From NCBI GenBank assembly GCA_944474755.1, contig OX104120.1:45612067-45676066 (forward strand): 64,000 nt of DNA, read 5' to 3'. The position numbers and the translations under genes are program-made. The notes under the pieces are model-generated. The model made no database searches and was not told where the DNA came from. It saw nothing but the letters and a program-made list of their open reading frames with translations. Source of the DNA: Limnoperna fortunei (Eukaryota > Mollusca > Bivalvia > Mytilida > Modiolidae). Each line of letters begins with the position of its first letter. Positions within the stretch are counted from its first letter, which is position 1. Positions 894 through 61,495 of this stretch are shown here, piece after piece.

Positions 894-1095
894 CTAATTG
901 ACCACGTATTCTAGAGGGGTATAAGACGCTAGATCTATACGAGTTGTGCTGTATATTATTATGACAACAGATAAACAGTCAAATTTTATTATGTTCACAA
1001 CACAAAGATGGCAAGGGACGACATGCTTTGATACAGCATAATTAATATTAACTGGACCACAAAAGCATTTTAGTGGTCCAGGTAATAAGACATAT
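894..1095. other. Flank of the retrotransposon, no gene seen
   Basis: Unique-looking sequence between the minisatellite and the LTR. A TGGTCCA pair around 1055-1080 forms a small stem. The last four bases (ATAT, 1092-1095) are the left copy of the target site duplication. Confidence 0.6.
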
Positions 1096-2598
1096 TGTAA
1101 CGCCGCGTCTCGGGTGCTAGAGTCAATCACCAGAGAATACTGCGATACATCAAAAGTCGGGATTACAATTATACGGGAAGTAAGGTTTTCTATAGATTGT
1201 TGGGTGTGGCGAGTTTTATACTTCACCAACCGAACACGCTATAGGATACAGGGATTTAAAATAGAATAATTTCAATCGAATATTTTATTAAATTATAAAT
1301 AGGGAAATCCGGAGAGAATGGCTGGAACGGCGCTGGTCTGGACATCTACTAGATCGGCTATTTCAAGTCTAACGTGTTTATTTGTTTTAAAGGGAATCCC
1401 TGACGTACTCAAAATAAAGAGATAATTTAATATGTATAAGCTAAAACGAGCCTATTTCTCAACATCGACATAACTAACGTTACTTGTACACTAAAATTAG
1501 ATAATGACGCTCATCTTTACTACTTTAGTTTCTTATCATCATTTGCACAAGCGAATTGCACCTAAACATTTGCACCAAACAAATTACACCTTAGAATTGC
1601 ACCAAACAAATTACACCTATGAATTGCACCAGACAAATTACACCTATGAATTGCACCAGACAAATTGCACCCGAATTTGCACCAAACAAATTGCACCTAT
1701 ATGAATTTGCACCAGACAAATTGCACCTCGAGAAACTCTACAAATTCTGTAATTATCTAATGTTTAAGTAAAACGGTGTAAATAATGCAATAGAATTAAT
1801 TATTACTAACTTTTGCCACTTCCGACATTTGATCCGACATGGTGAAAATTGATTCAAGTATATTTGAAGTTTGAATTTTTGCCGCTCTGTACACTTATTG
1901 AAATGTCAATGACGCAATTGGCATTTCCGGGACGAACCGCTACTTATATTCAGCAATTGACCAATCACAAAATAGCTAACAAGAACTTTCTTATTATTAG
2001 CCAATCAGATTTGACGGTTTATCAAAACGTCGGCTAACATTTGTCCTTGCCAATTGTAAACAATAACAGTTTGACTGAAATAAAATGTTTTCCAGTCTAT
2101 TTTCGATTATAACAAACATGCACCACTGCATAAAACATATAAACACAATCGCGGTGACATAAGAATTATTACAATTATTTCAAAGGATTACTTTTACGTA
2201 GGTATATAGAAATAGATCTACGTTTGTGAACAAGTTTGTTCAACTTTTCCGGACCTAAACATTCAAACCATGTCTAATTTGTTTTTACACACCTTTTCAT
2301 AATAAAAAGGAACTATGTATTGAATTATAATGCATCTTGTCCGGTTGATATAACAACAAAAACTCTTATTAGCAACTTCTTCAGAACCATATTATGCAAA
2401 CGGGACAATAACCATCTCGGACACAAATACCGAAATATGACATTTTACACTACCAAATAACGACTACCAACAATGTTTTGTAACAAATTAAGGGTTAAGG
2501 GACAGTTTCATTACAACTAATCCATTCAATAACACCAATAATAGTGGCTCCGCAATTCAACTCTACCAAATTAAAAGAAAAAGGGGGGCGGCATTACA
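1096..2598 (-). repeat. 3' LTR
   Basis: The 1503-bp direct repeat is offset from the other LTR by 8727 bp over most of its length. On the minus strand it starts TGTAATGCCGC and ends GGCGTTACA. A candidate poly(A) signal AATAAA lies on the minus strand at 1284-1289. Short frames inside (for example 894-1229 minus and 1504-1704 plus) recur in the other LTR and are not genes. Confidence 0.95.
1541..1728. repeat. Degenerate 22-25-bp array inside the LTR
   Basis: About eight imperfect copies of a unit containing TTGCACCAAACAAATT, with separators such as ACACCTATGAA. The same array is in the 5' LTR at 10268-10455. It lies in the half of the LTR nearer the CA end on the transcribed strand. Its role is not evident; it could bind a host factor or simply be slippage product. 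Confidence 0.85.
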
Positions 2599-2613
2599 TT
2601 GCCCCCTACCTAC
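2599..2613 (-). other. Polypurine tract
   Basis: On the minus strand, GTAGGTAGGGGGCAA abuts the first base of the 3' LTR. This is where plus-strand DNA synthesis is primed in LTR elements; the position and purine richness are what identify it. Confidence 0.8.
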
Positions 2614-2920: not shown

Positions 2921-4102
2921 TCAACACACATTAAGTCGACATGCACATAGGTCAGCGAGTCTCTCCTCCACTACTGCCTTCAGCCCAAATAGTTTATAAA
3001 ATTTCGCCTCAAGTGCTATCTCATTTAAGTAGTGATGTTCTCTTGGAAGATACCTTTTCTCTATTAAACAGTTGTTTCTCAAATAATTTAGAATAATCTT
3101 GAAGTGTGCTGGATCTCTATCAAAAGTATATACATTTTTACACGGTCGGAAAGCGCTGTTATTGTTGAGCATTAAGGCAAAAACGGATGAGGGATCTGCT
3201 CTTAAGGTGTTTTTGCTAGTTTCGAACCGAACACCTCCGATATTCAGTACTACCATATTCTCCTGGCAATCCTGCAGATATTTAAGGTACGTATCCACTT
3301 CATCAGACATTGTCTGCGATTTTGCTACAACTATTGACGTATCCATGGTCTTGTTGGTAGAAGTAGATGAGGATGAAGAAGAGGAAGAGGAATCATCATC
3401 TGAATTGATATCAGTGCCATCTGGTTGTTCGGACCGGAATTCCTTGAATTCTTCTTCGCTAACATGGAGTTGTAGTTCCGAGGTCTCTGGTGGCTTATGA
3501 CTAGTCTCAAACGTTACACTCAAATTTTCTCCAAGTTCAGATGACAAATCTTGCAGCACTGACTTTATCTTCTCTAACTTCTCTGCTCTAGATTCTAACT
3601 TTGGCTTCTTTTTCTGGGGCTCATGCTCATTCAATGGTTTGTTTTCTTTATTCTCGCTAACTTCCCTCATCTTAACCGTTTCTTTTCTTCTACACTCTAT
3701 CAATTTTCTAGCGTCGTCTTTGTCTTTTTCGGTCATTAAAGTATGACTTATGGTGCTGCTCTTGGTGGATCTGTTCGTTAAGTAGTTCCTCCTTGGATTT
3801 ATAGGCACCTCCTTTCCCTCAGTATCTAGGTGTTTCATTTTCTTCCATACCTCATTGCGTTTAAATGCCTCCATCTCTTGTTCTGCTTTTTCTCCCCTGA
3901 CTCCACTATTATTATCGAAACAAATCATCTGATGACTTTCCACCTTGCATCCATGCTGTATGTTCTGGCGAGGGAACAGCTTCTTGCATACTGGACACTT
4001 GTACCCGAAAGGGCTGTGTCGTTCCATAATGTGCCTTTCTGCGCACCATCTTTTATCGAACTCTAGGTCATCACAAATTAGACAGACCCACTTATTCTCC
4101 AA
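2921..4102 (-). CDS. Extra 3' frame of the retrotransposon: zinc-finger plus KCTD/T1-type BTB protein
   Basis: A 393-codon frame in the same orientation as gag-pol, sited where env would be. Residues 7-29 form C-x2-C-x13-H-x4-H, a C2H2 finger; residues 36-57 give a second C-x2-C followed by H50, C52 and H57. A Lys/Glu-rich middle (about 85-210) and an acidic run then a Ser tract (about 235-255) follow. Residues about 280-375 match the T1/BTB_2 tetramerisation fold of KCTD proteins and Kv channels: NIGGVRFET, then FDRDPAHFKIILNYLR, then EAKFYKLFGL. No signal peptide or membrane segment is seen, so it is not an envelope protein. The frame opens at TTG (4100-4102), not ATG; the first in-frame ATG is codon 26, and the sequence just upstream looks like a splice acceptor (pyrimidine-rich, then GGAG), so a spliced mRNA is plausible. 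Likely a captured host gene. Function unknown; DNA or protein binding and self-assembly are inferences. Confidence 0.85.
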   Translation of the reverse strand: MENKWVCLICDDLEFDKRWCAERHIMERHSPFGYKCPVCKKLFPRQNIQHGCKVESHQMICFDNNSGVRGEKAEQEMEAFKRNEVWKKMKHLDTEGKEVPINPRRNYLTNRSTKSSTISHTLMTEKDKDDARKLIECRRKETVKMREVSENKENKPLNEHEPQKKKPKLESRAEKLEKIKSVLQDLSSELGENLSVTFETSHKPPETSELQLHVSEEEFKEFRSEQPDGTDINSDDDSSSSSSSSSTSTNKTMDTSIVVAKSQTMSDEVDTYLKYLQDCQENMVVLNIGGVRFETSKNTLRADPSSVFALMLNNNSAFRPCKNVYTFDRDPAHFKIILNYLRNNCLIEKRYLPREHHYLNEIALEAKFYKLFGLKAVVEERLADLCACRLNVC

Positions 4103-4484: not shown

Positions 4485-7400
4485 TTAATTCAATGAAAAC
4501 CACGTGGGCTTATTCTCGCCCTCGTACAACTTCAATTTATCATGGTGAACCACTTTTGCTGTACCCTTTGGGCTCAACTTTATACGATAAAGCACATCGT
4601 TTAACTTGCTGACCACTATATAGGGACCATGCCAAGGCCTTTGTAATTTGGGGTTCTGGCCGACTTTTCGTTTATATTGGTAATACCAAACCGGATCTCC
4701 AATATCAAATTTATTCTGTTTAATTTTATGATCATAGACCTTTTTCATGGCATCGCTGGTCAGTTTAAGTTTTTGTCTAGCGCATTCATGAACTTTTTCC
4801 AATGTTTGGGCCAGAGCTTCAACATAGTCAATTTTATTTTGTGGTATACAACTTTCAGTTTCAGGTTTACCATATACAAGATCAACGGGTAAATTGACAT
4901 TCCGCCCAAACATCATTTGGTTAGGGGTCACTCCAGTGCTTTCATGGACAGAAGACCTATAGGCCATCATAACAAGAGGGATAAACTGATCCCAATCTTT
5001 TTGATGCTTTGATATAAAAGAAGCCAACATATTTAGAATGGTTCGCATATATCGTTTTACCATTCCATCAGATTGGGGTCTCATAACTGTTGTTCGAGTC
5101 TTGTCAATTTCCAACAATTTGCACATTTCCTGAAAAAGTATAGATTCAAAATTTGCTCCTTGGTCGGTATGCAATTGCATAGGAACCCCAAACAACGAAA
5201 CAAAATTATTTACAAAAGCTCGTGCTACGGTGTCAGCTTCCTGGTTCTGTATCGGTATGGCATGTACAAACTTAGTGAAATAGTCACCAATTACTAGAAG
5301 ATATTTGTTACCACTTTCTGTGGTAGTTAAAGGACCAAGAATATCTAATGCGACTCTTTCAAGACAAGCACCTACTTGATATTGACGCATTGGAGCTTTC
5401 GGTTTACATACAGGAGATTTTCTGCTTGCGCAAACGTCACATTTGCGGCACCAATTTTCCACAAATTTTCTAACTCCAAACCAAAAATAACGTTCCCTAA
5501 CTTTACTAAGGGTCTTTTTTACACCTAAATGACCACCCCCACTTGCATTATTATGCAAATGTATCAAAATAGAAACTTTTAAACTATCAGGTATAACAAT
5601 TAACCAGGAAAAGTTCTCCCCATTTTCACTTTCAAACTTTTTACACATTATCCTATCTCTTATTTGAAATGAATCAAGTCGATTCCAGTAATATTTTATT
5701 TCTGGACTATATTTTGAAATCTCTGACCATTCAGGTTTAATTGCTTTTTCTAACCATTCTCTAACTATTTTTAAGTTCTTATCATGTACTTGTTCTTTCT
5801 CCACATGGCCATAATTATCATGTTTTACATTAACAATTTTTGACTTTGTCCCCCTTTTTCCTCGCTTGGTCATAGCCCTTGTGGTAACTGTACTCACTTG
5901 AGTCTCATACTCACACTCGTTATCGGGTATTTTGCTCCTGTAAACATCGCGAGAGGTTTCTCTATTCAGTAGCTTTATACCCGAATCTGAGTTTACGCCA
6001 TCAAATGAGCCAATTGTGTTACCGCTTATAATACAAGTTTCATGTTCAGTGTCCCCTAAAATATCATCACTATACACGCACTTACTAACTGTAGCAAGTG
6101 CCCCTTTGTGTATATTATTGGATTTGTTTTCGGACTTCTCAACTGTTTGTTTGACAAAACCTATGGGTGTCACATGGACTGACTGCACTGAAGCTACTCG
6201 ATCTGAATTGTCAGTCGAAACATTAACTTCAGATCCTCCAGAGCAACTTAATAAAGTCTCTTTCCGAGAACAGTGCGAACAGTTGTCAGGACACGGGCGA
6301 CGACTAAGACCGTCAGCGTTTGCATGTATTCGACCCGCTCTGTGTAAAATGGTAAAATCATAACAACCTAGTACTTCAAGCCATCGAGCTAGCTGACCTT
6401 CTGGTTCTTTAAAATTCAATAACCATCGAAGGGACCCGTGGTCCGTTCGAACAGTAAATTTTCTAGCATACAGATAATGATGAAAATTTTTGATGGTCAT
6501 AACAATAGCTAGTAGCTCTTTACGTGTTACACAGTAATTAGTTTCACATTTAGAAAAGGTCTTACTGAAGAAAGCAATTGGCTTTTCAACACCATTTTGG
6601 TTTTGTGATAAAACTCCCCCCATTCCATAGAAACTAGCGTCACAGTCGACTATAAATTCCCCTTCATTTTGAGGATAACCTAAAACTGGAGCAGATACTA
6701 ACAATTCCTTCAATACATTAAATGATTTTTGACAAGAGTCATTCCAAACAAACTTTTTGCTCTTTTCGGTCAGTTGGTGGAGGGGTTTAGCAATCGTGGC
6801 AAAATCTTTAACAAATCGTCGATAATACGAACAGAAACCCACAAAACTTCGGGTCTCTTTCACATTTCTAGGTACCGGCCAATCCCGGACTGCTTCAATT
6901 TTGGTATCATCAGTACTTATACCATCTTTGGTCACTTTGTGCCCCAAGAAGGTAACTTCATTTTGCGCTAAAACACATTTATCAGGATGTAATTTTAAAT
7001 TGGACTGTCTTAACCGATCACATACTTCCCGTAAATTGTTTAGATGTTCATTGAAATCTTTAGAGTAAACTATTATATCGTCAAGATATACCAAGCAAAT
7101 TTTCCACGTTAAACCGGAAAATATCTTTTCTACAAGCCTCTCAAATGTGGCAGGGGCCCCACTCAGCCCGAAACATAACACCTTAAATTGCCAAAGTCCA
7201 CTACCGGGTATAGCAAAAGCAGTTTTTTCACGGTCTCTTTCTTCCAGACCACATTGCCAGTAACCCGAGCGCATATCAAGGGTGGAAAACCATTTATTAC
7301 CGCTCAATGCGTCTAAAGTATCATCTATTCTAGGTAGAGGTTGACAATCGTTTTGACTAACAGAGTTCAGTTTTCTGAAATCGCAACAGAATCGTATCTT

Positions 7401-8114
7401 TTGATCTGTTTTCTTAGTAACCATAACAACTGGGGAACACCAAGCAGAGTTTGAAGGCTCGATGATGCCTCGAGCTGCCATGTCTTCAATTTCTTTCATT
7501 GCGGCCTCGCGTTTAGCCAGAGGGAGCCTATAGGGCCTTTGTTTTATAGGTTTCGTATCACTTGTGTTAATTTTATGTTTAACTATCTCCGTATAACCTA
7601 TATCAAACGATGACTTTGAGAAAACATCCTGGTACGAGCATAAAAAATCTTTCAATTTGTCAACTTGATGTTTATCTAAAATTTTAGAACCCTTCTCTAA
7701 AACATTAACTAGATGTTCTGGCAACCTTTCATCAGTTACACTTACACAATTTATTCGAGTGGGAGGATTTTCATTTTGAACAATGTGTTCACTATCTATT
7801 GGTTCAAAAATTCCGGCAACAGTATTTTTATAAACTTTCACGGGTTTGTCACCAAAATTTGCAAGACGTAAAGGTATAACATTTGCATTATGTCTTACTA
7901 AAGCTCTAGCAACAAGTAAGCCAGTTTTTTCAGAAAAATCTTGTTTGGTTTCGACAATACCAATTGAGTCATATTTCAAAGGACCAAAGGCTTTACCATT
8001 TATTATCATTTCACAACAAGGCGGAATCTCTACATCTTCCGCTATTGACACCCTACAACAAGACACGTCGCCTTGATTTGTAAATATCGGAATAAATTCA
8101 TTTCCGATACTCAA
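4485..8114 (-). CDS. pol: Gypsy pol: reverse transcriptase, RNase H, integrase
   Basis: A 1209-codon frame that copies the RNA into DNA and inserts it. Domains in order: RT (about 170-400) with LDM and the YLDD active site near residue 340; RNase H (about 480-600) with DCDASFYGMGG and TDHGSLRWLL; a tether; integrase HHCC finger (about 850-890), catalytic core (about 915-1065) and a C-terminal GPY module (HGPYIVV, about 1163). The core has Asp in VALDILG and Asp in HTDQG. Exactly 35 residues after the second Asp, where DD35E enzymes have Glu, there is Lys (GMVKRYMRT, codon AAA at about 5059-5061). A Glu codon needs one base change, so this copy's integrase is probably dead. The frame opens at TTG and has a TAA nine bases upstream of it; it overlaps the end of the protease frame by four bases in the -1 phase. 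Confidence 0.95.
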   Translation of the reverse strand: MSIGNEFIPIFTNQGDVSCCRVSIAEDVEIPPCCEMIINGKAFGPLKYDSIGIVETKQDFSEKTGLLVARALVRHNANVIPLRLANFGDKPVKVYKNTVAGIFEPIDSEHIVQNENPPTRINCVSVTDERLPEHLVNVLEKGSKILDKHQVDKLKDFLCSYQDVFSKSSFDIGYTEIVKHKINTSDTKPIKQRPYRLPLAKREAAMKEIEDMAARGIIEPSNSAWCSPVVMVTKKTDQKIRFCCDFRKLNSVSQNDCQPLPRIDDTLDALSGNKWFSTLDMRSGYWQCGLEERDREKTAFAIPGSGLWQFKVLCFGLSGAPATFERLVEKIFSGLTWKICLVYLDDIIVYSKDFNEHLNNLREVCDRLRQSNLKLHPDKCVLAQNEVTFLGHKVTKDGISTDDTKIEAVRDWPVPRNVKETRSFVGFCSYYRRFVKDFATIAKPLHQLTEKSKKFVWNDSCQKSFNVLKELLVSAPVLGYPQNEGEFIVDCDASFYGMGGVLSQNQNGVEKPIAFFSKTFSKCETNYCVTRKELLAIVMTIKNFHHYLYARKFTVRTDHGSLRWLLNFKEPEGQLARWLEVLGCYDFTILHRAGRIHANADGLSRRPCPDNCSHCSRKETLLSCSGGSEVNVSTDNSDRVASVQSVHVTPIGFVKQTVEKSENKSNNIHKGALATVSKCVYSDDILGDTEHETCIISGNTIGSFDGVNSDSGIKLLNRETSRDVYRSKIPDNECEYETQVSTVTTRAMTKRGKRGTKSKIVNVKHDNYGHVEKEQVHDKNLKIVREWLEKAIKPEWSEISKYSPEIKYYWNRLDSFQIRDRIMCKKFESENGENFSWLIVIPDSLKVSILIHLHNNASGGGHLGVKKTLSKVRERYFWFGVRKFVENWCRKCDVCASRKSPVCKPKAPMRQYQVGACLERVALDILGPLTTTESGNKYLLVIGDYFTKFVHAIPIQNQEADTVARAFVNNFVSLFGVPMQLHTDQGANFESILFQEMCKLLEIDKTRTTVMRPQSDGMVKRYMRTILNMLASFISKHQKDWDQFIPLVMMAYRSSVHESTGVTPNQMMFGRNVNLPVDLVYGKPETESCIPQNKIDYVEALAQTLEKVHECARQKLKLTSDAMKKVYDHKIKQNKFDIGDPVWYYQYKRKVGQNPKLQRPWHGPYIVVSKLNDVLYRIKLSPKGTAKVVHHDKLKLYEGENKPTWFSLN

Positions 8115-8404
8115 GCAACCTTAGTAAAAAGTAAATCTACTTTAAATTTATAAATAAAATCGGTGCCTAAAATAACGGCGTCTTTAATATTAGCTAGTAA
8201 AAACTCGTGCTTACACAATCGATCACCCAACTTTATTTCTAAAGGTACACTTCCAATAAATTCGGATGCTTCTCCCGTTGCAGTTAAAAGATTCATTCTG
8301 ACAGGCGTAACTTGGGGTCTTTTATCTACGGGAATTGATTTAAAAATGTCATATCTTAAAATAGAAACACAAGCGCCAGAATCAACCAGCGTCGGGACTG
8401 ACAC
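8111..8404 (-). CDS. Retroviral-type aspartic protease frame
   Basis: Contains the active-site signature LVDSGACVS at residues 6-14 and ILGTDF near residue 77, typical of Gypsy proteases that cut the Gag-Pol polyprotein. The 97-codon stretch listed opens at GTG, but the frame is open further upstream and overlaps the end of gag; protease is in the -1 frame relative to gag, so -1 ribosomal frameshifting is the likely route of expression. The frame ends in TGA overlapping the first usable pol codon. In most Gypsy elements protease and RT share one frame, so the second break is either a second frameshift site or a one-base loss; I cannot tell which from one copy. Confidence 0.85.
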   Translation of the reverse strand: MSVPTLVDSGACVSILRYDIFKSIPVDKRPQVTPVRMNLLTATGEASEFIGSVPLEIKLGDRLCKHEFLLANIKDAVILGTDFIYKFKVDLLFTKVA

Positions 8405-8481
8405 TGAATTGATAGTTGACAGAACAAAACAACCATTGTCTTTACCCCAAGTTATATTTGCTATTATAGTGTTGGGTCTTT

Positions 8482-9720
8482 TTACTGCTGTCGAAAGTTG
8501 ACCCGTGCTCTCGACATCGGTCCGTTTTCCGACTGATTAAACGTTTGCCTACTCGTTCCGAAAGGTTTATTGAAGTTTCTTCTCGGTTCGTTTCTATTAA
8601 AGTTACCATTATTTTGATTTCTACTTATATTTTGAGGACCTTGATGGTACTGATTTTCATTACCCTTTTGATTTTGACAAATATTATGGGTCCTTTTCAT
8701 GTAACCCATGTCATTTTTAAGGGACTTCATTCCCTCTTTTAATTCATTGATGTCTTCTTTCAGACTGCCTTCATTGTTCGCGTCGTCACGAACACAATCA
8801 TTAAGCGACCTCGTGTCAGCAGTTCTTACGAATCTATCTTTTTGACGGTCAGCTAACCTTAGAGCTTCAAGTCTTACAGCAATATTTTCTGCCTCATTTA
8901 TTGTCTTTGGTCCAACTTCCCTCAAGCGAAGTCTAATAACTGTTTCTGGAATTGCGTCAATAAAATAGTCTAGCGCTAAAGTATCTCTTACTAAAGCGGA
9001 AATACCAGGGTATGCTTTTCTTGTCAGCTTTTTAATAGATTGCGCCAATTCTGGCAAGGTCTCATTTTTGTGTCTAATCCTAGATTGCAATTCGGCCCTA
9101 AACACATCCGCTCTATTAACGGAACCAAACCTATTTCTGAGAACCGAAATCAGACTATCAAAATCGTGCCTTTCAGTTTCAGTCATTTCATTTAAAATAG
9201 CCCTTGCGGCCCCAGTCAAACTACTTGCTAATAAAAGTGCTTTCGATCTAGTATTCCAACCATTTAATTCAGCTAACAAATTAAATTGTGTTAAATATTC
9301 CTCTAAATCATCATTACCATCATAAATTTGGGGTTTTATCTTACAGTTTATTTCAAACCGATCGTTTGAATTTGCATTTTGAACGGCGTGACTATTATTG
9401 CAATTGTTTCCATTATCTATTGTTTGTCTCGATGGACAATCTTTTCGCTTCCTTACGGCCCGCGCAGGGGTACTCATCGCCGAAACGGAAAGTTCATTTT
9501 GAAAAGAAGCCAACATATCATGCATTTTGTGGGAGAAATCATTCATACATTTTTCCATCATTCGATTCATTTCACTTGTAATTTCAACAGCCATTCTCTC
9601 CGCCGTTTCCAATCGTTTATTACGATCATCATCTGACAATTCTATGTTAGAAGGTAGCGTTTCCTCTGGGTCATCCCGACCATTTGTTACCGGACCGAAA
9701 CAAACTTCAGAATCATCCAT
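8482..9720 (-). CDS. gag: Gypsy Gag
   Basis: A 412-residue structural protein that packages element RNA, with a true ATG at 9718-9720. An acidic, partly coiled N-terminus leads to a retrotransposon Gag core (about 130-300) recognisable by KPQIYDGNDDLEEYLTQFNL, AARAILNEM and LRNRFGS. The C-terminus (about 330-412) is rich in Asn, Gln, Arg and Phe. No CCHC zinc knuckle is present in it, nor in the region read after a -1 shift, so RNA binding probably depends on the basic N/R-rich tail. It is the first gene after the primer binding site and overlaps the open protease frame at its 3' end. Confidence 0.9.
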   Translation of the reverse strand: MDDSEVCFGPVTNGRDDPEETLPSNIELSDDDRNKRLETAERMAVEITSEMNRMMEKCMNDFSHKMHDMLASFQNELSVSAMSTPARAVRKRKDCPSRQTIDNGNNCNNSHAVQNANSNDRFEINCKIKPQIYDGNDDLEEYLTQFNLLAELNGWNTRSKALLLASSLTGAARAILNEMTETERHDFDSLISVLRNRFGSVNRADVFRAELQSRIRHKNETLPELAQSIKKLTRKAYPGISALVRDTLALDYFIDAIPETVIRLRLREVGPKTINEAENIAVRLEALRLADRQKDRFVRTADTRSLNDCVRDDANNEGSLKEDINELKEGMKSLKNDMGYMKRTHNICQNQKGNENQYHQGPQNISRNQNNGNFNRNEPRRNFNKPFGTSRQTFNQSENGPMSRARVNFRQQ

Positions 9721-9800: not shown

Positions 9801-9818
9801 ATCCCACCGCTGCCACCA
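9801..9818 (-). other. Primer binding site, tRNA-Leu type
   Basis: On the plus strand ATCCCACCGCTGCCACCA equals the 3' end of tRNA-Leu(AAG), including CCA, as I recall that tRNA from animals. On the element strand it is TGGTGGCAGCGGTGGGAT, four bases (TTTA) after the end of the 5' LTR. Confidence 0.85.
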
Positions 9819-9822
9819 TAAA

Positions 9823-11320
9823 TGTAACGCCGCGTCTCGGGTGCTAGAGTCAATCACCAGAGAATACTGCGATACATCAAAAGTCGGGATTACAATTATA
9901 CGGGAAGTAAGGTTTTCTATAGATTGTTGGGTGTGGCGAGTTTTATACTTCACCAACCGAACACGCTATAGGATACAGGGATTTAAAATAGAATAATTTC
10001 AATCGAATATTTTATTAAATTATAAATAGGGAAATCCGGAGAGAATGGCTGGAACGGCGCTGGTCTGGACATCTACTAGATCGGCTATTTCAAGTCTAAC
10101 GTGTTTATTTGTTTTAAAGGGAATCCCTGACGTACTCAAAATAAAGAGATAATTTAATATGTATAAGCTAAAACGAGCCTATTTCTCAACATCGACATAA
10201 CTAACGTTACTTGTACACTAAAATTAGATAATGACGCTCATCTTTACTACTTTAGTTTCTTATCATCATTTGCACAAGCGAATTGCACCTAAACATTTGC
10301 ACCAAACAAATTACACCTTAGAATTGCACCAAACAAATTACACCTATGAATTGCACCAGACAAATTACACCTATGAATTGCACCAGACAAATTGCACCCG
10401 AATTTGCACCAAACAAATTGCACCTATATGAATTTGCACCAGACAAATTGCACCTCGAGAAACTCTACAAATTCTGTAATTATCTAATGTTTAAGTAAAA
10501 CGGTGTAAATAATGCAATAGAATTAATTATTACTAACTTTTGCCACTTCCGACATTTGATCCGACATGGTGAAAATTGATTCAAGTATATTTGAAGTTTG
10601 AATTTTTGCCGCTCTGTACACTTATTGAAATGTCAATGACGCAATTGGCATTTCCGGGACGAACCGCTACTTATATTCAGCAATTGACCAATCACAAAAT
10701 AGCTAACAAGAACTTTCTTATTATTAGCCAATCAGATTTGACGGTTTATCAAAACGTCGGCTAACATTTGTCCTTGCCAATTGTAAACAATAACAGTTTG
10801 ACTGAAATAAAATGTTTTCCAGTCTATTTTCGATTATAACAAACATGCACCACTGCATAAAACATATAAACACAATCGCGGTGACATAAGAATTATTACA
10901 ATTATTTCAAAGGATTACTTTTACGTAGGTATATAGAAATAGATCTACGTTTGTGAACAAGTTTGTTCAACTTTTCCGGACCTAAACATTCAAACCATGT
11001 CTAATTTGTTTTTACACACCTTTTCATAATAAAAAGGAACTATGTATTGAATTATAATGCATCTTGTCCGGTTGATATAACAACAAAAACTCTTATTAGC
11101 AACTTCTTCAGAACCATATTATGCAAACGGGACAATAACCATCTCGGACACAAATACCGAAATATGACATTTTACACTACCAAATAACGACTACCAACAA
11201 TGTTTTGTAACAAATTAAGGGACAGTTTCATTACAACTAATCCATTCAATAACACCAATAATAGTGGCTCCGCAATTAAACTCTACCAAATTAAAAGAAA
11301 AAGGGGGGGGCGGCATTACA
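9823..11320 (-). repeat. 5' LTR (promoter LTR)
   Basis: The 1498-bp partner of 1096-2598, same TG...CA ends. It should carry the promoter and the poly(A) site. It contains the GCACCAAACAAATT array at 10268-10455 and a candidate AATAAA on the minus strand at 10011-10016. Confidence 0.95.
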
Positions 11321-11324
11321 ATAT

Positions 11325-22940: not shown

Positions 22941-23846
22941 TACGAAAGCCCATTAGGCTCATTTTGGTAGAGTAAACAAAAATTTTTTCGAGTAATAACG
23001 CGTAACTTTCGCGTAATGACGCGAAGCTGTCGCGTAATAACGCGAAACTATCGCGTAATTATGCGAAACTATCGCGTAATAACGCGAAACTTTCTTTATA
23101 TAATTAGGCTCATTTTGGTAGACTAAACAAATTTTTTTTTTCGCGTAATAACGCGTAACTTTCCCGTAATAACGCGACGCTGTCGCGTAATAACGCGAAA
23201 CTATCGCGTAATAACGCACGCGAAGCTATCGCGTAATAATGCGAAACTATCGGGTAATAACGCGAAAAATATCGTAATAACGCGAAACTTTCACGTTATT
23301 ACGCGAAAAATTCTTTATATAATATGTTGCGCAGAACTTTTTCTTCACAATGCGTAACTACATGTATATCTTAAAAGTTAGATAGGTATCTACGTTTTTG
23401 TTTTATAAAATGAAGTATGAAACCGAAAATCTTATACAGCTCTATTTTGAGGTTGGACTTGCAAACAATGAGATTTTAAGTTTTCTAGCAATTTTGAATA
23501 GAATCATAATAAGCAATTCAACACTAAAAAGACATTGAAAAAATTACGATTGACGAAAAGAAAAGATTACTCTGATGTTTGTGATGTTGCTTTGTTTATT
23601 TTAAACCTTTTCTCAAATCATTTTGTCCTTTACTTCATCTGACGAATGCTTAAAAAAAATGTATAAAAAATCCTTTTCCTTTTCCATTTTGTTAAAAATG
23701 ATTGAAAATAAATATAAACATTCATTATATAGTATGTTTTCGCGATATAACGCGATAAGTTTCGCGTTATTTTGCGATAATTTTCGCGTTATTACGCGAA
23801 AAAAAGTTTTTTTAGTCTACCAAAATGAGCCTAATGGGCTTTCGTA
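22941..23846. mobile_element. Fold-back-like element with inward CGCG arrays
   Basis: Ends TACGAAAGCCCATTAGGCTC (left) and its inverse (right), flanked by GTTTAA at 22935-22940 and 23847-23852. Inside each end lies an array of a 21-bp unit (CGCGTAATAACGCGAAACTAT) in opposite orientation, so the inverted ends are themselves tandem repeats, as in Drosophila FB elements. A second partial copy of the end motif sits at about 23104. The minus frame 22959-23219 (RYYAIVS heptapeptides) is just the array read in frame. No transposase. Confidence 0.85.
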
Positions 23847-29279: not shown

Positions 29280-31325
29280 TTATCGGATGTTTCTACGATA
29301 TTTAGCCACACATTGGGCTACATGAGCATGACACAATTTTGTAAAGTTTATCAATTGGTCATCATTCAGTGTTGTGTTTGGTTCCCTCCCCAATAACACT
29401 TGAAATTGTTCCTCGTGATCATAACTGTCTAGTTCAATAAACAATTCGTGCGGATAATTGTCAATAACTATATCCCACCAAACATCCCGGAGGATCCAAG
29501 TTGACGGACAATTTAGACATGCATGAATATAGACATCTTCAAATGATCGATTGCAATACGCACATACGCCATTGGAAGAATATGGTATTTCGGCCCAAAC
29601 TTTTGTTATAAGGTAAGATCGTCTTATTTCCGTAAAAGTTAGTGAGTGTTTCCAGAAGTGTGCCAACTGGACACTATGGTGCAAGTTTCTAAATCTGGAA
29701 AAATCATTGTCATTGGTTATTCGACTATGCCAATCGGAAGTGTGTTTTTCAAAAATTGCATTGTTTACAATTTTTCTCCACGCATCTTTTTCAGGAAAAT
29801 AACCATCTAACATATAGTCCAAGATATATCTAGAGAGTCCATATTTAAAGAGAATATCTATTATGTCTGGAATGAAACCATAGTGTTGACGTCTTTTGTC
29901 TACCATAAACGAGAAAAGTCTTATAACGAAAATCTTTTTAGACAGATAGGTTTCGTTCATAACACACAGTTTATTTAGGAATAACAACTTCTTTTTATCA
30001 ATATAAGCGTCAATAGGATGCAGTCCAAGTACACTCTGACAAATATCGGATCTAGTTAGCGTTTTAAGGTTCAAAATATGTTTTATAATGAAGTGTTGAA
30101 ATTTGTTTAATGTCAACCAATCAGATGATTTCAAGTTAGTCCACATTTAACAACCATATAGGGCAGTTGGCAGGACAACGGTCTTATAAAGTTTAACAAA
30201 TATTGACGGGTTTGTAAATTGCGAGGAGATTCCGTTCAGTGCGAAGTATGCATTTCTTCCTTTTCTGCACGCATTCACAGTTCTATCGATCGACTTCAAT
30301 TTAGAGTTTATCTCAATTCCAAGATGACAGTAAGTTTCTGCTTTTGGAATAAGTTCATCACCGATATACCATAAATAATTTATATTACAGTCTCTTGAAT
30401 TTGCAGCAAATTGCAGAATACAAGATTTGTCCGCGTTAAAACAAAACCGCCACTTGTTAGAAAAATTTACACAAATATCAAGCATTTTTTGTAATTGACG
30501 TGGAGATGTGCTAACACACGCTATATCATCAGCCAAGGAAGGAGCACAAGAAGTTATATTGAAAATACCAGTGTTTCTATTCGCTTTTTCAAGACTAACA
30601 ATTAGGTCGTTTATAAAAATAAGATATAGCAAACCTGACAATACGCCGCCTTGGCGAACTCCCTCTTCAACAGTAAAATACATAGATTGACTCTGATTGA
30701 CTATTACAGCACTTTTAGTATCAGTATAACATTTATTTATTAAGTTCCAAATATTCCCTGTTATTCCTAATCTATACAATTTAACCATTAAACCCTTTCT
30801 CCATACGGTGTCAAATGCCTTACGGCTATCTAAGAAAGCTACAAACACATTGCTACATAGCTCTAAATTATGATAAATCGTTTCGTTAAGGTTAAAAGAA
30901 GCATTTACACAACCAAGATATCTCTGAAATCCCTGCTGTTGTTTGTTGGGAAAATGACAAGGGTCTAAAACATAGGACGAAAGTCTAGATTTAATAACAT
31001 GTTCAAACAATTTTAGCATGCAAGGAAGAAGACTAATAGGACGATAACTGTCCGGTGACACTTTTGGTTTATTGTTCCCTTTATATATTGGCACTATTAG
31101 ACCTAGTTTCCAACTTGCAGGAATTTGTCCTTTATAAATTATGAAGTTAAATATCTTTGTAACACATCTAACAACAGTTTGGCCTCCATATAACAAATGT
31201 TCATATTGTAGTTTATCGTGACCACTTGCTTTTCGTCGTTTTAAAGTTTTATATGTTTCAAGAATTTCCTGTTCAGTAATATCGCCTCCAGGAAGTTTTC
31301 TATCATTATTTGGAATACTATCCAA
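29280..31325 (-). pseudogene. LINE reverse transcriptase frame with one nonsense codon
   Basis: The frame copies LINE RNA at the target site. 30147-31325 holds the RT: KLGLIVPIYKGNNKP, SYRPISLLPCMLK, AFLDSRKAFDTVW, GVRQGGVLSGLLYLIFINDL and the catalytic LADDIACVS (ADD kept; the usual preceding aromatic is Leu). 29280-30146 is the C-terminal part with a C-x2-C-x9-H-x1-C-x2-C cluster (CAYCNRSF ... CLNC). The two halves are in the same frame and separated by a single TAA at 30147-30149, directly after ALYGC, where related LINEs usually have Glu (GAA), so one base change explains it. The frame continues upstream of 31325 to about 31415. Jockey/CR1-like group by overall layout; the exact clade is not assigned. 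Confidence 0.85.
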
Positions 31326-59973: not shown

Positions 59974-61495
59974 CACCTCGCCATAAGTTAAGCAACACCC
60001 TATTATTTTCCAAGTATTCATTTAAGATTTTATATATTTTAATATTTTTCAAAGAAATGCCAATTTATTGAAAATTAATGACAAATGAAACATACAAACA
60101 ACATGTTTACAGTCGCTTTACTTATTGTTTGATGAAAAAATGTTCAAAGCAAAGACAAAAACAGTGCAAATATAAGTTTGATTGCATACTTCAATTTCAT
60201 GAACTTAAAGCAAACACATCATCACAGGTCAACGTTCAGGGAAAGAAAAGTCACTTTGAAATAAGTCGTGTAACCACCATGCTTGCGGTACAGTTCATTA
60301 ACTCTCCTCCTCGCGCTGTTGACTAAACGACGAAGTGTAGCATGTGGTAAATTCTGCCATTCATTTTGAATGGCAACACGTAGTTCTTGAACATTTTGAC
60401 AAGCAGGTGCTCTGTTATTGATGATATCCCACAAATGTTCAATTGAATTCATATCGGGTGACATGGATGGCCATGAAAGATGCTCAATAGCTTCCCCTTC
60501 GATAACATCACGTACAATTGCAGCTCGTTGAGGTCTTGTGTTGTCATCCATAAAGATGGGTCTGTTACCAAGTGCATGATTGTCAAAATGTGGCGCAATA
60601 ATAGCGTTAATGACGTCATTTCGATATTTCTGCCCTGTCATTGTCCCATCAACCACATACAGATTCAGTTTGCAGTCGTATAAAAAGCCTCCCCACACTG
60701 TTACACAACCGCCGCCAAACGCTGTAGTGCCTAAGGTGTTGTTCTGGTTGTAAGTAGTGCCTCGTTGTCTCCAAACGCGCATGCGCCCATCAATATGACG
60801 AAGAAGGAATCTGCTTTCGTCGGTCAAGTGTACTCGTCGCCAGCTTCAAATATTCCAATGGCGGTGATATAGTACCCACTCTAACGTGCTTGGCGATGTC
60901 TCTGTGTCAACAGAGGACGTTTCAAGTTACGACGAGATTTTAACCTTGTATTGTTAGGGCGCCTTTTAACTGTTCTAACGGCGACTCTGGTTTGCAATAT
61001 TCCAATCGTCACGAAGCTATCTTGCAGTGGCAAACGGTTGGCGTTTTGGCTACACGAACGAGTGCTCTATCCTCCCTTTCAGATGTTTTTGGTGGTCGAC
61101 CTGACCTAGGACGTTCCTGGATAGTTCCATCATCTCGATGACGTTTCAGTAGCCGGGATACAATACTGAAGTGAATGCCAAAGTGTTGTGTTATCTGACG
61201 CAAGCTCTGTCCACTATTACGAATTCCAACGATCTGCCACTTCTCTCAGCTTCACTAAATTTCTGTCTAGGCATTGTAAAAATGTAAAGATGAAGTCGAA
61301 AAAGACCAGAAGATGAACATTTAATCGTTAAGGAAAACAATGCTTTTAGGCGTGCTCGACTACTGTATGACAAGCTGGTTTTGCTATTTAAAGATTTACC
61401 TGAGGAGTTAATTAAAGTAACTTTCCTGTTAATATTTATTCAGATTTTTGAAGTTATAACACAATTGTAGGTGTTGCTTAACTTACGGCTAGGTG
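59974..61495 (-). mobile_element. Tc1-type DNA transposon, dead
   Basis: 1522 bp with inverted ends CACCTCGCCATAAGTTAAGC (left) and GCTTAACTTACGGCTAGGTG (right), flanked by TA at 59972-59973 and 61496-61497. TA target, a single transposase gene and DD34E spacing fit Tc1. Ends are well kept although the gene is broken. Confidence 0.9.
60222..61274 (-). pseudogene. Tc1-type transposase, frameshifted
   Basis: The enzyme cuts and pastes the element. ATG at 61272-61274 (MPRQKFSEAER). The N-terminal helix-turn-helix pair is split between two frames (61191-61274; then 61009-61203 with ITQHFGIHFSIVSRLLKRHR and the GRPPKT hook). 60828-61008 is disrupted by a further shift and a stop. 60222-60827 is open and holds the catalytic part: DESRF, FMDDNTRPQRA and SIEHLWD, with 34 residues between the second Asp and the Glu. 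So the triad is intact but the reading frame is not. Confidence 0.9.

What the first reader, a model, noticed from the sequence alone, without database searches (positions are those of the whole stretch)
2921..4102. Gypsy retrotransposon carrying a zinc-finger plus KCTD/T1 BTB gene in the env position
The frame is co-oriented with gag-pol and lies between pol and the polypurine tract, so it is part of the element, not a neighbour. T1/BTB hallmarks (NIGGVRFET; FDRDPAHFKIILNYLR) and a C2H2 finger are readable. I know of no described Gypsy lineage with a KCTD-type protein. A tetramerising adaptor could act in silencing escape, nuclear entry, ubiquitin ligase recruitment or promoter control; all of these are inference.
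Basis: partly seen in the sequence, partly recalled or inferred. Interest (0 to 1): 0.88.

Follow-up and report, generated by a model that had tools for sequence, protein, structure and literature searches.

The report
Retrotransposon with spliced zinc-finger KCTD gene
A family of virus-like jumping genes in this genome carries, besides the usual replication genes, an extra gene for a zinc-finger protein ending in a KCTD-type adaptor domain; natural selection has kept it across several divergent families, and it looks as if it is made from its own spliced message.

The parts
9823..11320 (-). 5' LTR, 1498 nt, TG...CA ends
   Evidence: 1 mismatch and 9 gap columns in 1505 aligned columns against the 3' LTR
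1096..2598 (-). 3' LTR, 1503 nt
11321..11324 (.). target-site duplication ATAT, 5' side
1092..1095 (.). target-site duplication ATAT, 3' side
10670..10677 (-). TATA-like site in 5' LTR (copy at about 1943-1950 in the 3' LTR)
   Evidence: by eye
10538..10567 (-). predicted first coding exon in the LTR, MSDQMSEVAK, followed by donor-like GT at 10536-10537; same sequence in the 3' LTR from 1840
   Evidence: counterparts in five other families
9802..9818 (-). primer-binding site TGGTGGCAGCGGTGGGA (tRNA-Leu type by recall, not tested)
8482..9720 (-). gag, 412 aa
   Evidence: Retrotrans_gag E 9.4e-4, below the curated cut-off
8111..8536 (-). protease frame with DSG motif (motif by recall), different frame from gag and, in this copy, from pol
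4485..8120 (-). pol: RT, RNase H, H2C2, integrase
4097..4098 (-). acceptor-like AG in front of ORF3
2921..4096 (-). ORF3 main exon: 391 aa plus stop
3947..4084 (-). two zinc fingers (C2H2, then C2HC); all eight ligands invariant in 10 sequences of six families
3254..3946 (-). charged, Ser-rich linker, mostly of low model confidence (its first about 50 residues are modelled with confidence)
2987..3253 (-). KCTD-type BTB domain
2599..2613 (-). purine-rich tract next to the 3' LTR

Best explanation
A lineage of Ty3/Gypsy-type LTR retrotransposons gained, probably once and long ago, a third gene that is now fixed in it. Shown by sequence: it sits inside the element, is inherited with pol and is under purifying selection. 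Suggested by sequence: it is translated from a spliced mRNA whose start codon and first 4-14 codons lie in the LTR and whose intron removes gag-pol. Inferred: the protein is a modular adaptor. The KCTD-type BTB oligomerises and recruits Cullin-3, while the paired zinc fingers bind a target (a host silencing or restriction protein, or element nucleic acid). The element thus brings its own E3-ligase adaptor, in the manner of lentiviral Vif or Vpx but with Cullin-3. My probabilities: integral selected gene 0.97; spliced 0.85; Cullin-3 adaptor as the main activity 0.45.
Against: No RNA, protein or binding data. KCTD16 did not bind Cul3, and KCTD1 is described as a transcriptional repressor (PMC7618933, abstract start in listing). 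Donor-like sites match GTRAGT at 5 of 6 positions only; family A's scores below the cut of 1.0 and was found by eye. In D one of two copies lacks the phase-0 GT, and D has an in-frame Met before the fingers, so an unspliced start is possible there. In A another ATG lies about 30 nt after the TATA-like site, taken to be at or before the start of transcription. The window copy has a one-base departure at its acceptor-like site and a pro/pol frame break. In B linker dN/dS is 0.87-1.12, and neutral simulation reached the observed count in 220 of 2000 runs for L014/L016. D, E and F have one pair each with few differences (dN/dS 0.52, 0.68, undefined). The BTB tree does not make ORF3 BTBs monophyletic against host KCTD-type domains (B with the host group, support 88), so two captures are not excluded by BTB alone. 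Trees disagree on D/E at low support.
Confidence: 0.5

Rival explanations
1. ORF3 is a nuclear transcription or chromatin regulator: the fingers bind the LTR or host DNA and the BTB oligomerises it, so it drives or tunes the element's own promoter (as KCTD1-type repressors or complex-retrovirus transactivators do), without Cullin-3.
Against: 11-68% of shuffled linkers have such a cluster, so it is weak evidence; only two fingers, the second of C2HC form, which can equally bind protein or RNA; fold matches are weak (Foldseek E 0.6 or worse).
Confidence: 0.3
2. ORF3 acts on the element's RNA or particle (packaging, nuclear export of unspliced RNA, co-assembly with Gag), with the BTB giving oligomer valency.
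For: The zinc-finger module is co-inherited with pol; a spliced gene beside an unspliced genomic RNA creates a need for export of unspliced RNA (general retrovirus knowledge); family F has an Arg/Ser-rich linker.
Against: RNA binding was not tested; related elements without a detected ORF3 (0 of 60 rows) have multiplied too.
Confidence: 0.15
3. Passive cargo: a captured host KCTD fragment carried along, with the open frame kept by recency alone.
For: Many copies are young (paired repeats 96-100% alike in the 14 loci where seen), so frames would look open anyway; loci were chosen for long open frames.
Against: Domain-wise purifying selection, retention across families with dS saturated or undefined, 56 of 60 co-occurrence, shared splice-like signals.
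Confidence: 0.03

Closest known systems
Bdelloid rotifer LTR retrotransposons Juno and Vesta with non-envelope ORF3 (DEDDy exonuclease, GDSL esterase); PMC5408684, passages read
   Same: A captured non-env ORF3 in the env position of LTR elements, missing from the earliest branches.
   Different: Other domains ('btb' and 'kctd' have no occurrence in that text); that paper reports no significant departure from neutrality within genomes, while here the fingers and BTB are under strong constraint.
Orchid Ty3/Gypsy elements with an AlkB m6A demethylase ORF; PMC9289625, abstract read
   Same: A host-type regulatory domain fixed in a Gypsy lineage, proposed to reflect host surveillance against the element.
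   Different: An enzyme with activity shown in vitro, in plants, a recent acquisition; here an adaptor-type protein in six or seven divergent families, with a predicted LTR-borne first exon.
Lentiviral Vpx and Vif accessory proteins; Vpx: PMC8570500 abstract read; Vif: abstract starts in listing
   Same: Accessory gene beside gag-pol; the proposed mechanism is bridging a host target to a cullin ligase.
   Different: DCAF1 (Cullin-4) or Cullin-5 ligases and, by recall, unrelated folds; here Cullin-3 recruitment is only predicted from the BTB fold.
KCTD proteins (KCTD5, 10, 13, 17)
   Same: BTB fold and sequence of KCTD type.
   Different: The BTB is C-terminal, behind two zinc fingers and a long linker; KCTDs are described with an N-terminal BTB and a C-terminal domain (PMC5664961, passages).
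ZBTB transcription factors
   Same: Zinc fingers and a BTB domain in one protein.
   Different: Reverse order (ZBTB order by recall) and a BTB_2 (PF02214) rather than BTB (PF00651) domain: PF00651 matches the window copy only at E 0.099 and L023 at 0.027, below its cut-off.

Membership tests
Ty3/Gypsy (Metaviridae-type) LTR retrotransposon | LTRs, short target duplication, PBS and PPT | tested here: met
   (PBS and PPT by position and eye)
Ty3/Gypsy (Metaviridae-type) LTR retrotransposon | RT-RNase H before integrase in pol | tested here: met
   RVT_1 236-396, RNase H 459-587, H2C2 843-902, rve 934-1015
Ty3/Gypsy (Metaviridae-type) LTR retrotransposon | Placement in a named clade (Mag/C-clade, MolGy and so on) | not tested
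   No reference RT sequences at hand; clade names seen in PMC6238403, passages
env-bearing Gypsy elements (errantivirus type) | Third ORF is a fusion glycoprotein | tested here: not met
   ORF3 is zinc fingers plus BTB_2, no env family in the rows; transmembrane prediction not run
env-bearing Gypsy elements (errantivirus type) | Third ORF expressed from a spliced subgenomic RNA | tested here: inconclusive
   splice-like signals in phase in six families, chance control for five; no RNA
KCTD protein family | BTB domain of the T1/KCTD type | tested here: met
   BTB_2 in 10 of 10 members of A1; KCTD structures rank first
KCTD protein family | N-terminal BTB followed by a C-terminal domain | tested here: not met
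   BTB_2 match ends 21 residues before the C-terminus in the window copy
Cullin-3 substrate adaptor | Binds Cullin-3 | not testable with these tools
   single-chain prediction only
ZBTB family | N-terminal PF00651 BTB with C-terminal C2H2 array | tested here: not met

The most novel reading that the evidence does not exclude
An LTR retrotransposon lineage has, like a complex retrovirus, a spliced accessory gene whose start exon is encoded in its own LTR, and the product is a self-assembling Cullin-3 adaptor that the element uses to remove a host silencing or restriction factor caught by its zinc fingers.
Probability: 0.3. Interest if true: 0.92.

Novelty: new variant of a known kind. Interest (0 to 1): 0.74.

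Why it matters
Captured non-envelope ORFs in LTR elements are known, but among the rows listed by my paper searches (titles and abstract starts; open-access library only) I saw no LTR element with a KCTD- or BTB-type ORF. A fixed, selected adaptor gene across several divergent families gives a handle on how retrotransposons meet host control, a question mostly studied through lentiviral accessory proteins. An LTR-borne first coding exon spliced over gag-pol would be a compact design, and it predicts one junction that any long-read RNA set can test. Such copies also inflate KCTD/BTB gene counts in annotation: dozens of the 133 PF02214 matches in this genome sit behind an integrase of this clade.

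Tried and rejected
Nested host gene or insertion: rejected. ORF3 as a frameshift or read-through product of pol: rejected for most families, since over 300 bases with stops lie between pol and ORF3 and an in-frame stop stands one or two codons before the exon in B, C and E. ORF3 starting at TTG or an internal Met: unlikely in five of six families, which have no in-frame Met before the fingers; D has one upstream of the AG. The donor search near gag's start with a stricter cut gave no site shared by the families; sites were then found in the LTR with a lower cut and by eye, so the splice claim is partly post hoc. One search's control covers five families (D's promoter-like site was not found in L022), and the starting points were chosen by eye, 35 nt after each promoter-like site; product of the five chance frequencies 7.6e-6, but exons of A, D and E look alike, so the families are not independent. 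Kv-channel T1 origin: phmmer ranks Shaw T1 first (E 1.1e-8) and KCTD5 next (3.5e-8), but the tree puts ORF3 BTBs with 8 host domains that I class as KCTD-type (97), apart from 15 that I class as Kv-type (100) (class names from motifs by recall). Host donor gene of the KCTD part: not found. No relative in viral contigs. The stretch after the fingers (residues 55-100) had no convincing structural match (inconclusive). L034, a decayed probable seventh family, has remnants of fingers and BTB with pol at 42% identity; its integrase is not among the 120 rows, so the 52/53% boundary holds for the rows scored only. The 3' regions of the related elements without a detected ORF3 could not be read, so a very divergent third frame there is not excluded.

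Dropped rows: one search used 71 of the 133 BTB places and 34 of the 116 ORF3 rows; one search rechecked the 61 rows without ORF3 (60 low-identity ones and C8:52232440) against all 133 BTB places (1 had a neighbour within 15 kb, a separate family E element). One search used 38 sequences, leaving out close duplicates and partial domains. Domain-wise dN/dS was run for 5 of 6 C pairs and 2 of 6 B pairs. Paper listings showed 20 of 65, 20 of 143, 20 of 1184, 7 of 7, 15 of 18, 11 of 11, 1 of 1 and 12 of 24 papers; of the papers that hold both KCTD and LTR retrotransposon I opened only PMC9004415.

Full report
WHAT IS THERE. The LTRs are 1498 and 1503 nt, with 1 mismatch and 9 gap columns in 1505 aligned columns, ends TGTAA...TTACA and a 4-bp duplication ATAT. 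So this copy is young. gag is at 8482-9720, a protease frame with DSG at 8111-8536, pol at 4485-8120 with RT, RNase H, H2C2 and integrase in the Ty3/Gypsy order. The primer site TGGTGGCAGCGGTGGGA is of tRNA-Leu type by recall. In this copy pro and pol are in different frames, although other copies have them joined.

IT BELONGS TO THE ELEMENT. PF02214 has 133 matches in the genome (150 of 172 candidates scored) and the ORF3 protein 116 (102 of 325 scored), from intact to heavily broken. I fetched 20 loci with long open frames. 19 have gag and/or pol upstream in the same order; the last, L015, has an integrase about 8 kb up, outside the fetched stretch. Outside family A the pol of copies with more than 1000 aligned residues is 46-65% identical to the window's. 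The reverse test starts from integrase (120 rows, 119 of 4151 candidates scored). ORF3 or BTB lies within 4.5 kb downstream on the same strand in 16 of 18 rows at 90% identity or more, 3 of 3 at 70-89, 17 of 17 at 60-69 and 20 of 22 at 53-59; and in 0 of 8 at 51-52, 0 of 42 at 45-50 and 0 of 10 below. Of the four rows without it in the upper bands, three are two places whose ORF3 lies about 8 kb on and one has none. Checked against all 133 BTB places, the low rows have none nearby except one, whose neighbour within 15 kb belongs to a separate family E element. Pol and ORF3 trees both separate A, D and E from F, B and C (support 100 and 96), and both join B with C (pol 64, with L034 inside; ORF3 94). 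They differ on whether D pairs with E (pol, 67) or with A (ORF3, 74). I read this as one gain followed by co-inheritance.

SELECTION. In family A the window differs from six close copies by 5-10 synonymous and 1-4 nonsynonymous changes; whole-frame dN/dS is below 1 in 35 of 36 within-family pairs and undefined in one. Family C (dS 0.06-0.31) has 0.16-0.21. By domain in 5 of 6 C pairs: fingers 0-0.04, BTB 0.04-0.21, linker 0.21-0.28. In 2 of 6 B pairs: fingers 0.12, BTB 0.11-0.13, linker 0.87-1.12. Neutral simulations reached the observed synonymous counts in 0 of 2000 runs for L018/L019, 0 of 2000 for window/L013 and 220 of 2000 for L014/L016. D, E and F have one pair each, with few differences. 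Between families dS is saturated or undefined.

HOW IT IS PROBABLY EXPRESSED. In five of six families no in-frame Met precedes the first zinc ligand (D has one, upstream of the AG), and in B, C and E an in-frame stop stands one or two codons before the exon. In all six families the conserved part begins right after an AG in phase 0, mostly behind a T-rich run. In the LTRs, beyond a TATA-like or other promoter-like site, the first ATG more than 35 nt on opens a short frame that meets a donor-like GT in phase 0 (tested by script for A, B, C, E and F; D by eye): A MSDQMSEVAK, B MSQAQINLKSQIAM, C MRCEEKFGSSISL, D MSDIPS (copy L022; L023 lacks the phase-0 GT), E MSENLSKADK, F MFTK. Unspliced, each meets a stop 3-21 codons later. 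Each GT matches GTRAGT at 5 of 6 positions, which is moderate. Shuffles reproduce the property in 5-16% per family (A 258, B 151, C 187, E 326, F 102 of 2000). The phases fit one open frame across the junction. This resembles env or accessory-gene splicing in retroviruses, but without RNA it is a prediction, and the search was partly post hoc.

WHAT IT MAY DO. The KCTD BTBs tested by others bound Cullin-3 except KCTD16, in 5:5 assemblies (PMC5664961, section 8 and passages). With fingers as the target-binding end, the plainest reading is a ligase adaptor carried by the element, comparable in logic to Vpx (PMC8570500 abstract). A DNA-binding regulator is the main rival. I put 0.45 and 0.30 on these.

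NOVELTY. Captured ORF3s exist in rotifer elements (PMC5408684, passages) and in orchid Gypsy elements (PMC9289625, abstract). In the rows listed by eight paper searches (titles and abstract starts) I saw no LTR element with a KCTD or BTB frame; the library is open-access only and Repbase was not at hand. The KCTD passage in PMC9004415 concerns KCTD1 and Cryptons, a different story; PMC3212892 on Cryptons was seen in listings only.

LIMITS.

Mended on review: the Met statement (family D is an exception), the tree disagreement on D and E, the basic-cluster control, the confidence ranges and the scope of the paper searches.

Noticed in passing
1543-1728 and 10270-10455: 27-bp tandem repeats (about 7 copies, TTGCACCAAACAAATTACACC...) in both LTRs, just downstream of the predicted donor; by eye, other GGTG-rich short repeats stand at a like place in the LTRs of families B, D and E. 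Possible splicing or packaging signal.
   Followed up: no
L026:6271-7437, L027:2468-3634: The ORF3 linker of family F is rich in Arg-Ser dipeptides, like SR proteins; other families have charged or Ser-rich linkers.
   Followed up: no
L011 and L031 (C11:38.30 and 38.31 Mb): Two family A copies lie about 10 kb apart on the same strand.
   Followed up: no
L034 (C3:71155709-71160939): A decayed, very divergent element with remnants of the same zinc fingers and BTB, a probable seventh family.
   Followed up: partly
1-895: 90-bp/18-bp minisatellite open in several frames on both strands next to the element.
   Followed up: no
29280-31325 and 60222-60827: Reverse-transcriptase frame (RVT_1 E 1.8e-30), possibly non-LTR (not tested), and a DDE_3 transposase fragment.
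   Followed up: no
22986-23799: Arrays of a self-complementary unit TTTCGCGTAATAACGCGAAAC.
   Followed up: no
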